Assembly: GCF_001997295.1 (NCBI RefSeq)
Contig: NZ_CP019605.1
Location: forward strand, 992,001-1,056,000
Direction: 5' to 3'
DNA: 64,000 nt
From: Tessaracoccus flavus
Lineage (GTDB): Bacteria > Actinomycetota > Actinomycetes > Propionibacteriales > Propionibacteriaceae
Shown here piece by piece: positions 38,712 through 49,858 of the stretch. Position 1 is the first letter of the stretch; every line of letters starts with the position of its first letter. Under the pieces are notes generated by a model. That model did no database searches. It saw only the letters and a program-made list of their open reading frames with translations, and was not told the DNA's origin. The position numbers were made by a program, and so were the translations under genes.

Positions 38712-38901
38712 GCACGCGAAACAACTTCATAAAGACAGTTACCATCCCGCCGCCCAGCGCAGTATCCAGTCTGGTCCTCGGTAGTGGTTTTCGGGTGCCG
38801 AACACGGTCCCCCGCGAGCCTCGATCGAAGACCGGCAGGTGCAGATTTCAAAGGGCGTCATTGCCCTGCGCGGGTGGCACACACCCGAAAGGAGCCTGTC
38901 C

Positions 38902-46103: not shown

Positions 46104-47594
46104 ATGGCGATTCCCTCATTCGTCGACCGAGTCAAGCTGACGGTCGAGGCGGGAAATGGCGGGCATGGCTGCGCCTCCGTCCACCGTGAAAAGTTCAAGC
46201 CTCTCGGCGGTCCCGACGGCGGCAACGGCGGCGACGGCGGCTCGATCATCTTCCGCGTGGACGATTCGCTGTCCACGCTGGTCGAATACCACCGTCAGTC
46301 GGTGCGTCGCGCGGTCAACGGGCAGCCCGGTCGCGGAGACCACCAGCACGGTGCCCGTGGCCAGGATGTGGTGCTCGCTGTCCCCAGCGGCACGATCATC
46401 TCCGACGCCGACACCGGGGAGGTGCTCGCCGACCTCACGGAGATTGGCGCTGAGTTCATCGCCGCCGAAGGTGGCAAGGGCGGACTGGGCAACGCCGCGC
46501 TGGCATCCGCGAGTCGCAAGGCGCCGGGCTTTGCGCTGCTGGGAGAAGAGGGACAGTCCCGGGCCGTCCAGTTGGAACTGAAGGTCGTCGCCGATGTGGG
46601 GCTGGTCGGGTTCCCGTCGGCCGGGAAGTCGTCGCTCATCGCCGCGATCTCCCGCGCCAGGCCCAAGATCGCGGACTACCCGTTCACCACCCTCGTGCCG
46701 AACCTGGGCGTCGTCGTCGCCGGAGACGTGACCTACACGGTCGCCGATGTGCCCGGGCTCATCGAAGGCGCATCGGAGGGCCGCGGCCTGGGCTTCGACT
46801 TCCTCCGCCACATCGAGCGCTGCCAGGCGATCGTCCACGTCATTGATCTCGGCACCTACGAGCCCGGACGCGACCCCATCTCGGATCTGGAGGTCATCGA
46901 GGCCGAACTGGCTGCGCACGGGGGCCTCGAGGACCGGGTGAGGATGATCGCGCTCAACAAGATCGACCTGCCCGACGCCCCCGACCTGGCCGATATCGCC
47001 CTGCCTGAGTTGAAGAAGTTCGGCCACAGGATCTTCCGTATCTCCACGAAGACCGGAGAGGGACTGCCGGAGTTGAAGTTCGCGATGGCCGAAGTCGTCG
47101 CGGCCCGTCGCGCTGCACTGCCCGCCGCGGCTGCCCCGAAGAAGGTGCTGCGGCCCTCTCCCGTGGCGAGCAAGGGCTCCCAGGAGGAGTTCACGATCGT
47201 CAAGAAGGGCGACGGCGAGGGCGGCTTCGTCTGGCGGGTGCGCGGCGCCAAGCCCGAACGGTGGATCAGGCAGACCGACTTCAACAACGCCGAAGCGGTT
47301 GGTTACCTGGCCGACAGGCTCAACAGGCTCGGCGTCGAGGACAAACTCCTCGAGATCGGCGCCCGTCCGGGCGATGCTGTGGCCATTGGTGGCGAGGATG
47401 CGGTCGTGTTCGACTTCGCCCCGCAGGTTGATGTGGGGGCCGAGATTCTCAGCCGTCGCGGCGAGGACACGCGGCTGGAGGAGCAGCGACCCGCCGTCAC
47501 CCGGCGTCGACGCATGGATGCCGAGTACCACGCGGCCAAGGCGGTGGACTACGCGACCGGCGGTTACCAGCCCGAAGCCGACGATGAGGAGTGA
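46104..47594 (+). CDS. obg: GTPase Obg (CgtA)
   Basis: Ribosome-associated GTPase for 50S assembly and stress sensing. 496 residues: Gly-rich Obg fold ([16 protein letters not shown]), G domain with [20 protein letters not shown] and NKIDLPD, and a C-terminal OCT domain followed by an extension rich in charged residues. TAGGAGG precedes the ATG. The end overlaps proB by 11 bp. Confidence 0.96.
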
Positions 47595-48681
47595 GATCGC
47601 CGACGCCAAGCGCGTCGTGGTGAAGGTGGGATCCTCGTCCCTGACCGGCCCGGATGGGCATCTCGACCACGGCCGGGTGCGCGAGCTGGCACGGCTGCTG
47701 TCGGCGCTGCATGGCCGCGGCGCGCGCGTCGTGTTGGTGACCTCGGGCGCGATCGCCGCCGGCCTCCTGCCGCTGGGACTCACGCGCCGCCCCCGCGACC
47801 TGGAAACGCAACAGGCGGCTGCTGCCGTGGGGCAGGGACTGCTGGTCCGGCATTACGCGGACGCGTTCGCCGAGCACGGGGTCACGGTGGCGCAGTTGCT
47901 CCTGACCGTCGAGGACGTCCTGCGTCCCAGGACGTACCGCAACGCGCTCAACACGATCTCGCGGTTGTTCCGGCTTGGGGTGGTGCCCATCGTCAACGAG
48001 AACGACACGGTGGCAACCCATGAGATCCGGTTCGGCGACAACGACAAGCTGGCAGCCCTCATCGCCCATCTCGTCCGTGCCGACGCGCTGCTGCTCATGA
48101 GCGACGTCGACGGGCTCTACACCGCCCACCCTGATACCCCAGGGGCTCGCCGGATCGACAGGGTCGACGACCTCACCACCCTGGACGTGGATACGTCACG
48201 CGTAGGGTCGAAGGTCGGCACGGGTGGCATGCGGACCAAGCTGCAGGCGGCGGACATCGCCACCCAGGCCGGGGTCAGCGTCGTGTTGGGCCATGCCGAC
48301 GACCTCGAGCGTGCTCTGGCCGGCGATGAGGTGGGCACGTTCTTCGCGCCTGTTCGCAAACGCCGCCCGCGCAGGCTGCTCTGGCTGGCTTTCGCGGCCG
48401 AGCCACGCGGCTTCCTCCACGTGGACGCCGGCGCGCGCGATGCTCTGCTGCACGGCAAGGCCTCCCTCCTCGCCGCTGGCATCCGTGAGGTGCGGGGGGT
48501 CTTCTCCGAGGGCGAGCCGGTGGAGATGATCGGCCCGGACGGGCACCCGGTCGGTCGCGGCTTCGTCGCCTACTCGAGCGCTGACCTTGAGCACGAGATG
48601 GGTCACTCGAGTTCGGAGGCGGGGCACCGCCACCAGCGCCCCGTTGTGCACCGCGACCACATGATGTTGGCCACCGACTGA
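47584..48681 (+). CDS. proB: Glutamate 5-kinase
   Basis: First step of proline synthesis. 365 residues: amino-acid-kinase domain ([56 protein letters not shown]) and a C-terminal PUA domain ([13 protein letters not shown]). The start lies inside the obg end and has no strong ribosome site, so translational coupling is likely. proA lies downstream but is separated by the repeat region and the PQ-loop gene. Confidence 0.95.
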
Positions 48682-48772
48682 GCTGCGCACCTCAGCTTCC
48701 TTTGTAGCTGTCTGGATCCACCGATGGGTCGCTCCGCGAGCAGCCTGCGCGTGAATCGACGCGACGACGCGT
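48682..48772 (+). other. Spacer after proB, no gene
   Basis: 91 bp before the repeat array. A weak hairpin (CTGAG/CTCAG, 48678-48695) followed by CTTCCTTTGT may end the proB transcript. Nothing else is recognised. Confidence 0.35.
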
Positions 48773-49034
48773 ACGCCAACAGACAGGACCAAACGTCAAC
48801 AGGCAGGACGGAACGCCAACAGGCAGGGCCGAACGCCAACAGGCAGGGCCGAACGCCAACAGGCAGAGCCGAACGCCAACCGACATCCTCTAACGCCCGC
48901 GAGACCCATCGACGCCCGCGAGATCTCGCGGGCGTCGATGAGCCTCGTCGGCGTCGAGGCTTCTCGGTTGGCGTTGCGGCCTGCCCGTTGGCGTTTGTGA
49001 CTATCGCTTGGCGTGTGCGGTAAACCGTTGGCGT
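48773..49034. repeat. Mirrored array of an 8-bp motif with 20-bp period
   Basis: The motif ACGCCAAC begins at 48773, 48793 (ACGTCAAC), 48813, 48833, 48853, 48873 and 48893 (ACGCCCGC), always exactly 20 bp apart. Its reverse complement begins at 48947 (GTCGGCGT), 48967, 48987, 49007 (CTTGGCGT) and 49027, again every 20 bp. One more copy of each orientation lies inside a central palindrome (48912-48919 and 48928-48935). Reflection about 48923.5 maps each of 48813, 48833, 48853, 48873 and 48893 exactly onto a right-hand copy. The 12-bp spacers on the left are nearly identical to each other (unit ACGCCAACAGGCAGGGCCGA), while those on the right have diverged. A 20-bp period is not a multiple of three and cannot be a protein repeat. 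Confidence 0.9.
48907..48940. repeat. Perfect 34-bp palindrome at the array centre
   Basis: Two 17-bp arms with no loop, centred on AGATCT, starting CATCGACGCCCGCG and ending with its exact complement. It contains one degenerate array motif (ACGCCCGC) in each arm. It could be a dimer-binding operator, a cruciform, or the tip of an RNA hairpin. Confidence 0.92.
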
Positions 49035-49258
49035 GCCCCGTGAGGGACGGACGGTCGCCCGTCCACGTTTTCCGATACGCCCGCTCGTTCCTCGCTCGCA
49101 ACTCAGTGCGACGTTGGGGCGGTTCCTCGCGTCGGGAGGCGGGGGCGGCTCGCTTTCTCGCGTCGGGGAGACGGGAAGGCTCGTTCCCTTGGCCGCTCGT
49201 GGGTCACCGGGGGCGTGCACGTTTTGGTCGGCCGTGAAACAAGGCTTAGTCTCAAGCG
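49035..49258 (+). other. Non-coding spacer between array and PQ-loop gene
   Basis: 224 bp with no convincing gene. A hairpin GGACGG/CCGTCC (49045-49064) followed by ACGTTTT may be a weak terminator reading out of the array. An 11-bp direct repeat CTCGCGTCGGG occurs at 49126 and 49157. The segment just before 49259 should hold the promoter of the PQ-loop gene, but no good -35/-10 pair is evident. Confidence 0.4.
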
Positions 49259-49858
49259 GTGTTCATTGAGGTTTTCGGGTGGGTGGCTGCTGCCCTCGGG
49301 GTGTCGTCCAACCTTCCCCAGTTGATCCGCATCCTCAGGGAGCGCACGAGCGCGGGGGTGTCGGTTCAGCTGTGGCAGGTGACCGCCGCGTCGACGGCCG
49401 CGTGGTGCGTCCACGGCTTCCTCGTGAGCGCCCCCCAGATGCAGTGGCCGAACCTGCTCATGGCCGCGCTCTCCTCGCTCATCGTGGTGATGGTGCTGCG
49501 CGACCGCGGGGAGCCGGTCCTGCGGCAGTTTCTCCTGCCCACCGCCGTCGCTGCGCTTCTCATCGGATCCAACCTGTGGCTCGGTGCGCTGGTCTTCGGC
49601 CTGCTCGTCGCGGTGCCGCAACTCGTCGGACAGTTCTCCCAGCTGCGCCTCATGATCGGCGCGCCGGACCTGACCGGGGTCTCGCTCGGGTACCTGAGCG
49701 TGATCCTGCTGGTGCAGACGATGTGGTTCATCTTCGGGCTCGCCACAGTCGACTGGGCACTCATCGTGTGCGCGGGCTCGATGGTTGTGATCTGCTCGAT
49801 CAACCTCGCGGTCTACCTCGTGCGCCGCGCCCAGCACCGGGTCGCCCTCGCCGCCTGA
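49259..49858 (+). CDS. PQ-loop (SWEET/SemiSWEET-like) membrane protein, two repeats
   Basis: 199 residues with about six to seven membrane helices. Two PQ motifs are seen: SSNLPQLIRILRERTSAGVS near the N-terminus and VAVPQLVGQFSQLRL in the second half, each followed by helices typical of a triple-helix bundle. Bacterial SemiSWEETs usually have one bundle (about 90 residues), so this looks like a fused double-bundle form. Sugar or small-solute transport is the family expectation, but the substrate is unknown. GTG start; no clear ribosome site. Lies between the repeat array and proA. Confidence 0.8.
   Translation: MFIEVFGWVAAALGVSSNLPQLIRILRERTSAGVSVQLWQVTAASTAAWCVHGFLVSAPQMQWPNLLMAALSSLIVVMVLRDRGEPVLRQFLLPTAVAALLIGSNLWLGALVFGLLVAVPQLVGQFSQLRLMIGAPDLTGVSLGYLSVILLVQTMWFIFGLATVDWALIVCAGSMVVICSINLAVYLVRRAQHRVALAA

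What the first reader, a model, noticed from the sequence alone, without database searches (positions are those of the whole stretch)
48773..49034. Phased, mirror-symmetric 20-bp motif array around a perfect palindrome
Fourteen copies of an 8-bp motif (ACGCCAAC and variants) lie in a 262-bp non-coding stretch. On the left they start at 48773 + 20n (seven copies), on the right the reverse complement starts at 48947 + 20n (five copies), and two sit in the central 34-bp palindrome. Reflection about 48923.5 superimposes five left copies exactly on the five right ones. The motif is kept on the right side while the 12-bp spacers there have diverged, which points to selection on the motif and its phase. 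About two helical turns per unit would put all sites near one DNA face, as expected for a cooperatively binding protein. I do not recognise it as a known plasmid iteron, parS, DnaA-box or REP class. Alternatives: a long RNA hairpin with regularly spaced 8-bp stems, or a lineage-specific interspersed repeat.
Basis: seen in the sequence. Interest (0 to 1): 0.88.

Follow-up and report, generated by a model that had tools for sequence, protein, structure and literature searches.

The report
Phased mirror arrays at gene ends
This bacterial chromosome carries about 80 copies of a mirror-image DNA element between genes, built from an 8-letter site repeated every 20 letters on both sides of a palindrome; in two related species these sites change more slowly than the DNA between them, so they are likely landing sites for a protein that has not been identified.

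Summary
It is one of 80 copies (core pattern, up to 3 mismatches) in a 3.22-Mb genome: a palindromic core with outward arms of ACGCCAAC boxes, 19 bp for the first step and 20 bp after that, in one mirror orientation. A second type, with the same box, steps and mirror but a different core that is 10 bp longer, is dispersed in two sister species of the genus (G020, G033), with one copy in G019. Of 293 sampled genomes of the order only these two and the own genome match an exact box-box-mirror-box pattern. In seven orthologous G020/G033 elements the boxes differ at 4 of 262 sites, the spacers at 18 of 199 and the inner core at 15 of 126; the two indels are of exactly one and two units. Arms fold no better than chimeras, so an RNA hairpin through the arms is not supported. 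Elements sit mostly between convergent genes or just after a stop codon, and the proB site is empty in relatives. The best reading is a REP/BIME-like dispersed element with phased, selected protein sites. The protein and its role at gene ends are inferred. My paper searches found no description of it.

The parts
48773..48900 (+). Left arm: seven ACGCCAAC boxes (two are variants) at 48773+20n
   Evidence: phase shared by the family
48907..48940 (.). Perfect 34-bp palindromic core with two degenerate boxes (48912-48919 and 48928-48935), 19 bp from the next box on each side
   Evidence: 80 cores genome-wide
48947..49034 (-). Right arm: five GTTGGCGT boxes (two are variants) at 48947+20n, the mirror image of the left arm
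48682..49258 (.). 577-bp gap between proB and the SemiSWEET-like gene that holds the element; -1 to 240 bp (to the start of the protein match) in the 20 of 28 tabulated relatives that have a proB stop directly upstream
47584..48681 (+). proB (glutamate 5-kinase; name recalled from sequence and gene order); its stop is 91 bp before the array
49259..49858 (+). PQ-loop/SemiSWEET-like membrane protein (name recalled), used as anchor in the relatives
49084..49106 (+). Copy of another interspersed intergenic family (CTCGTTCCTCGC...ACTCAG) next to the array

Best explanation
The window's array is one of about 80 copies of a dispersed extragenic element, a palindromic core with two outward arms of the 8-bp box ACGCCAAC in 19/20/20-bp steps, which is likely bound by an unidentified sequence-specific protein that would assemble from the core outwards along one DNA face and is predicted to act as a two-way roadblock or insulator at gene ends. 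Shown: copy number, the tight phase, the mirror orientation, slower change of boxes than of spacers in orthologous elements of two related species, gain and loss of whole 19/20-bp units, lack of arm-to-arm pairing signal, location after stop codons and between convergent genes, and empty sites in relatives. Inferred: that a protein reads the boxes, that it binds cooperatively, that the core is the nucleation site, and that the effect is on transcription or DNA supercoiling at gene ends. The element also spreads and is lost, by an unknown route.
For: Phase: of 526 exact boxes within 400 bp of 81 cores, 432 sit exactly at 23.5+20k bp from the centre and 503 within 1 bp of it. F boxes lie left of the core (2 of 267 lie right, more than 260 bp away), R boxes right (0 of 259 left); one core has no exact box. 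Of 686 outer units (up to 2 mismatches) walked in 81 elements, 613 steps are 20 bp, 22 are 19 and 31 are 21. A detector that knows no motif finds 61 mirrored arrays in the 1.6 Mb of own sequence held, 59 of them with step 20, and 0 at steps 13-17 and 23-28. Selection: boxes 4/262 against spacers 18/199 and inner core 15/126 substitutions in 7 G020/G033 orthologous pairs. Inner boxes 0/112 against the 18-bp core between them 15/126, p 5e-5; outer boxes 4/150 against spacers 18/199, p 0.015; with G033 as reference 2/160 against 25/223, p 7e-5. A simulation of neutral change that allows for the way the pairs were found expects 15-18 box changes; P of 4 or fewer is 0.0003 or less. Indels: in 587 aligned element columns only one of 19 bp and one of 38 bp; 20 of mixed sizes in 1,848 flank columns. 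An own-type element differs from its orthologue (92.8% identity over 1,567 bp) by exactly one 20-bp unit in the left arm. The two core types keep the 19/20 steps and differ by 10 bp in total. Place: 39 of 81 between convergent genes against 87 of 510 junctions with a gap of at least 60 bp (p 5e-9); 4 of 81 divergent against 137 of 510 (p 2e-6). 32 of 38 tandem cases lie nearer the upstream stop.
Against: No binding protein was found and none of the protein-related steps was tested. Location after genes also arises if insertions elsewhere are harmful. In G020 and G033 the convergent bias is weaker (7 of 22 and 3 of 13 convergent; 2 and 2 divergent). Elements turn over: of 22 G020 elements, 7 are matched in G033, 5 have an empty or remnant site and 10 could not be decided, so no single copy looks essential. 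The selection test rests on 7 pairs; the members of each pair had also been found by a box-N12-box pattern with up to 1 mismatch, so their boxes were partly pre-selected (allowed for); and it was made in G020/G033, not in the window's own species. One right-arm spacer differs by 2 bp in the own-type orthologue. The window's array folds better than shuffles as RNA (z -9.8).
Confidence: 0.5

Rival explanations
1. A selfish miniature element: the boxes are recognition sites of a transposase or recombinase, and the copies are products of transposition with no host role.
For: At proB the site is empty in the 20 relatives (of 28 tabulated) with proB directly upstream (G020, G033 and G019 read). Empty or remnant sites between sister species whose flanks are about 92-98% identical. 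Patchy spread in the genus. Two core subfamilies (GCG/GCG 32 and TCG/TCG 20 of 81) and 9 of 81 elements whose outer flank is shared with another element directly from the array end. Arrays grow by tandem duplication (adjacent spacers 0.533 identical against 0.390 for random ones).
Against: Fixed copies should decay evenly, but boxes change more slowly than spacers at orthologous sites. The conserved part is the centre, while the outer ends vary in unit number. No Y1/RAYT-type transposase in the genome (PF01797; other transposase families were not searched). No transposase was apparent by eye among the gene products listed between 11 close element pairs.
Confidence: 0.27
2. A supercoiling or nucleoid site: a gyrase or a nucleoid protein binds or wraps the phased DNA between convergent genes, as proposed for BIMEs of enterobacteria (recalled).
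For: Convergent enrichment; helical phase along the arms; mild depletion around the presumed terminus (KS p 0.007-0.013).
Against: An 8-bp sequence-specific box with a free 12-bp spacer points to base-specific recognition rather than bendability. The terminus was placed only roughly from GC skew. No gyrase or nucleoid binding data.
Confidence: 0.15
3. An RNA hairpin: a transcribed long stem with 8-bp helices works as terminator or mRNA 3' stabiliser.
For: The window array folds at -154.4 kcal/mol, z -9.8. Location at 3' ends. Core halves co-vary (0.812 within against 0.772 across elements, 0 of 1,000 permutations as high), one outer spacer (71-83 bp) reaches nominal p 0.027 and the first box p 0.047 among nine regions tested. 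Unit numbers of the two arms correlate weakly (Spearman 0.28, p 0.011).
Against: Real elements fold no better than chimeras with another element's right arm (-116.59 against -116.33, p 0.81; arms alone p 0.42). Of 95 box positions with a departure, 1 is compensated in the mirror box. Over all units mirrored spacers are no more alike than those of random elements (0.391 against 0.390). Some elements have exact boxes on one side only (0 F and 7 R; 5 F and 0 R). The core co-variation may reflect the two subfamilies. The scan finds no T-tract terminator at the array.
Confidence: 0.06

Closest known systems
REP / BIME interspersed extragenic palindromes (GTAG REPs and RAYT transposases)
   Same: Many extragenic copies with palindromic units, mainly between convergent and tandem genes and near the 3' end of the upstream gene, uneven among relatives (PMC3733652; abstract and passages seen)
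   Different: Long arms of 8-bp boxes in a tight 20-bp register, no GTAG tag in the core consensus, no Y1/RAYT transposase in the genome, boxes held while spacers drift
CGTC-tagged REPs
   Same: The core ends in ...CGTC; no dedicated transposase is known for that family (PMC3733652, abstract)
   Different: That family has an unpaired CGTC tag, an 8-9-bp stem, a 4-5-bp loop and a CCA-like tail (passages). Here CGTC is paired inside a palindrome of 26 bp or more without a loop, and arms are added. The word Actinobacteria does not occur in that paper's main text
Plasmid and phage iterons (recalled)
   Same: Directly repeated boxes about two helical turns apart beside an inverted repeat
   Different: About 80 chromosomal copies at gene ends instead of one origin; no match to the window array in plasmid or phage records, none of the two patterns in viral contigs
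Transposon ends with several transposase sites (Tn7/Tn402 type, recalled)
   Same: Repeated sites of about 19-22 bp in mirror orientation
   Different: Here the conserved part is the centre, outer ends vary, and nothing but the short core lies between the arms in the elements read

Membership tests
REP (GTAG) / BIME | Dispersed extragenic palindromes, many per genome | tested here: met
   80 cores; gene context
REP (GTAG) / BIME | Terminal unpaired GTAG tag | tested here: not met
   consensus has no GTAG at the core end
REP (GTAG) / BIME | Y1/RAYT transposase in the genome | tested here: not met
   PF01797 absent from own genome; 5 of 14 control genomes rang
CGTC REP | 8-9-bp stem, 4-5-bp loop, unpaired CGTC and CCA-like tail | tested here: not met
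   core is a palindrome of 26 bp or more without loop and CGTC is paired
MITE | Inverted repeats and dispersed copies absent at orthologous sites | tested here: met
MITE | Defined ends with target-site duplication and a parent transposase | tested here: inconclusive
   no clean duplication seen by eye at the aligned empty sites; parent element not found, only Y1 searched genome-wide
Intrinsic terminator | GC-rich hairpin followed by a T tract | tested here: not met
   no such site at the array; one site at 48678-48695 before it, at chance level (1 found, 0.7 in shuffles)
Plasmid iteron / replication origin | One locus per replicon with a Rep gene | tested here: not met
   about 80 loci in one chromosome, ordinary genes between 11 close pairs by eye
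Protein-binding phased array | Sequence-specific protein bound to each box | not testable with these tools
   only indirect: box conservation and phase

The most novel reading that the evidence does not exclude
A new class of bacterial chromosomal element: a palindrome-nucleated, helically phased box array, present in scores of copies and recognised by a dedicated, still unknown polymerising DNA-binding protein that seals gene ends or partitions the chromosome; at least two versions with the same box and register exist in one genus.
Probability: 0.3. Interest if true: 0.85.

Novelty: new variant of a known kind. Interest (0 to 1): 0.66.

Why it matters
Interspersed palindromes such as REPs are usually discussed as hairpins or transposition debris. 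Here the elements keep an 8-bp box in a tight 20-bp register while the spacers drift, which is what one expects if a protein reads a scaffold on one DNA face. With about 80 natural copies of different arm length in one genome, and two core types in one genus, the question of what such intergenic arrays do (roadblock, insulator, supercoil sink or selfish element) becomes directly testable by pull-down, ChIP and 3'-end mapping.

Tried and rejected
Chance or a simple tandem repeat: rejected (0 in the reversed control; the eight loci of other taxa with the three-unit pattern are one-sided arrays without an exact mirror box in the stretch held). RNA hairpin through the arms: rejected as the main constraint although the window copy folds strongly. 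Rfam: no family at the array at gathering thresholds; the only match in the window is Actino-pnp at 38770-38836. RAYT: absent. Plasmid, phage or viral source: no match. Composite transposon: products between 11 close element pairs look like housekeeping genes by eye. Other genus members with other boxes: a motif-free detector found 0 in 100 kb each of G030, G021, G061 and G031 (about 7.6 expected in 400 kb at the density of the own genome, my arithmetic). A first tree and first gap table were wrong for minus-strand loci and were redone. That single-gene tree is weak (12 of 26 inner branches open); carriers fall in three places, so one gain with losses or several transfers remain possible. Papers: searches (61 papers hold both octamers; 20 listed, none looked related; 0; 23; 12 listed; 2; 0; 2; 95; 8 listed; 1) gave no description of this element in the listings; only PMC3733652 was opened (outline with abstract, and passages).

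Full report
What is there. Seven boxes stand at 48773+20n, five mirror boxes at 48947+20n, and a perfect 34-bp palindrome at 48907-48940. Counted in bases from the centre, box inner ends are the 5th, 24th, 44th, 64th... base, so the first step is 19 bp and later ones 20 bp. It lies in the 577-bp gap between proB and a SemiSWEET-like gene.

It is a family. ACGCCAAC-N12-ACGCCAAC occurs 151+155 times in the own 3.22-Mb genome and 0 times when the pattern is read backwards. The core pattern GACGCCCNNGANATNTCNNGGGCGTC occurs at 80 places with up to 3 mismatches, control 0. I held 1,605,500 bases of the genome as stretches, mostly chosen for elements, with 81 cores at up to 4 mismatches. Two further groups of three boxes without such a core are in the held part (767155 and 2434779). 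Of 526 exact boxes within 400 bp of the 81 cores, 432 sit exactly at 23.5+20k bp from the centre and 503 within 1 bp of that; 2 are on the wrong side, more than 260 bp away, and one core (1783664) has no exact box. Walking outwards with up to 2 mismatches gives 0 to 11 outer units per arm (mean 4.2 on each side, 686 in all), with 613 steps of 20 bp. By distance from the centre, the first outer box has 0.86-0.98 identity at each position, the second 0.81-0.90 where printed, and spacer positions mostly 0.34-0.60 with four at 0.75-0.84. In the held sequence outside elements the box is at its expected frequency (117 seen, 113.8 expected), so it is not avoided elsewhere.

How arrays change. Neighbouring spacers in one arm are alike (0.533) while mirrored spacers (0.391) are no more alike than random ones (0.390), so arms lengthen by tandem duplication and then drift. 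Contig 268 of the MAG G060 carries an orthologous element (92.8% identical over 1,567 bp; the contig is probably mis-binned because the SemiSWEET of that MAG is only 54% identical). There the own element differs by exactly one 20-bp unit in the left arm, and by 2 bp in a right spacer.

A second version in the genus. G020 and G033 carry CAG-ACGCCAAC-N12-ACGCCAAC-N11-ACGCCAAC-GATATTCGCGCGAATATC-GTTGGCGT-N11-GTTGGCGT-CTG elements: 24 and 13 cores at up to 3 mismatches, and one in G019. The box, the 19/20 steps and the mirror orientation are the same. The centre differs in sequence and is 10 bp longer in total, about one helical turn. In 293 genomes sampled from the order (37 genera) only own, G020 and G033 match box-N12-box...mirror box exactly. 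In the genus the own core (up to 2 mismatches) is otherwise seen once in G060 (exact) and once each in G010 and G025 (2 mismatches) out of 38 other genomes.

Selection on the boxes. For seven orthologous G020/G033 elements I counted substitutions: boxes 4/262, spacers 18/199, inner 18-bp core 15/126, flanks 224/2900. Split up, inner boxes show 0/112 against 15/126 in the core between them (p 5e-5), and outer boxes 4/150 against 18/199 (p 0.015), or 2/160 against 25/223 with G033 as reference. A caution: both members of every pair had been found by a box-N12-box pattern with up to 1 mismatch and by a loose core-and-inner-box filter, so boxes were partly pre-selected. A simulation of neutral change under those filters still expects 15-18 box changes; P of 4 or fewer is at most 0.0003. 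Indels inside these elements are only 19 and 38 bp, in 587 columns; the flanks have 20 of mixed sizes in 1,848 columns. So sequence and phase are both held, but the sample is seven pairs and is not from the window's own species.

Not an RNA stem. The window array folds well, as an inverted repeat does. But swapping in another element's right arm changes the mean energy by only 0.26 kcal/mol (p 0.81), 1 of 95 box departures is compensated, and some one-sided arms keep exact boxes. Signals the other way are weak: one of four spacer regions at nominal p 0.027 and one box region at p 0.047, and a weak correlation of arm lengths (0.28, p 0.011). The core halves do co-vary, which two subfamilies (GCG and TCG cores, 32 and 20 of 81) could explain.

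Where they sit. With a simple codon-model gene finder of my own, 39 of 81 are between convergent genes, 38 tandem (32 nearer the upstream stop; medians 54 and 163.5 bp) and 4 divergent. For comparison, junctions with a gap of at least 60 bp in a set of stretches mostly not chosen for elements are 87 convergent and 137 divergent of 510; in those stretches the elements are 12 convergent and 0 divergent of 27. Three pieces of that set were chosen for an element (the window and the stretches around 2825095 and 2882569). G020 and G033 show a weaker form (7 convergent, 13 tandem, 2 divergent of 22; 3, 8, 2 of 13). This resembles the location pattern reported for REPs (PMC3733652, passages).

Gain and loss. 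In the 20 of 28 tabulated relatives with a proB stop directly upstream of the SemiSWEET gene the gap is -1 to 240 bp; G020, G033 and G019 have no element there either. Of 22 G020 elements, 7 are matched in G033, 5 have an empty or remnant site and 10 stay undecided. In the own genome 17 of 81 elements share an outer flank of at least 50 bp with another element, 9 of them directly from the array end. Several of the intergenic regions read are mosaics with other repeat families. No Y1/RAYT transposase was found in the genome.

Reading. The combination of a drifting spacer, a held box, a held register, a mirror centre and unit-sized indels is best explained by a protein that reads each box on one DNA face and assembles from the centre. 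Given the location, I commit to a bidirectional roadblock or insulator at gene ends, but this last step is the weakest. A selfish element is the main rival and may also be how the copies arise. By kind it is nearest to REP/BIME elements; it fails the defining tags and the transposase test, so I file it as a new variant rather than a member.

Noticed in passing
window 49084-49106; CTCGTTCCTCGC 54 copies, 52 intergenic, in 1.6 Mb held: A second interspersed intergenic repeat family (CTCGTTCCTCGC...GCGGCCGCTACTCAG) lies right of the array and beside several other elements.
   Followed up: partly
own genome, 88 copies in 1.6 Mb held, e.g. near 160825, 2977900, 3080844: A third interspersed family with the word CCTGAGCTTGTCGAAGGG; seen in flanks of elements, its overall gene context was not counted.
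   Followed up: no
left of 101639, 481532, 804591; right of 547818-548062 and 1914474-1914676: A shared block around a variable palindrome like ACGACCACAGTGGTCGT (2 exact copies held) that accompanies several elements.
   Followed up: no
window 38770-38836 +: Actino-pnp RNA, above the Rfam gathering score.
   Followed up: no
L179 (G060:C268): Contig 92.8% identical to own 3113157-3114723 inside a MAG whose SemiSWEET is 54% identical: probably mis-binned.
   Followed up: partly
G033:C1 2344185 and 2344900 against G020:C1 about 771184-771601: G033 has a second element about 0.7 kb from the shared one; the matching G020 stretch (about 771543-771601) has none (G033 side read).
   Followed up: partly
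own genome 1.0-1.6 Mb: Elements are sparser around the presumed replication terminus (KS p 0.007-0.013; ori placed only from GC skew).
   Followed up: partly
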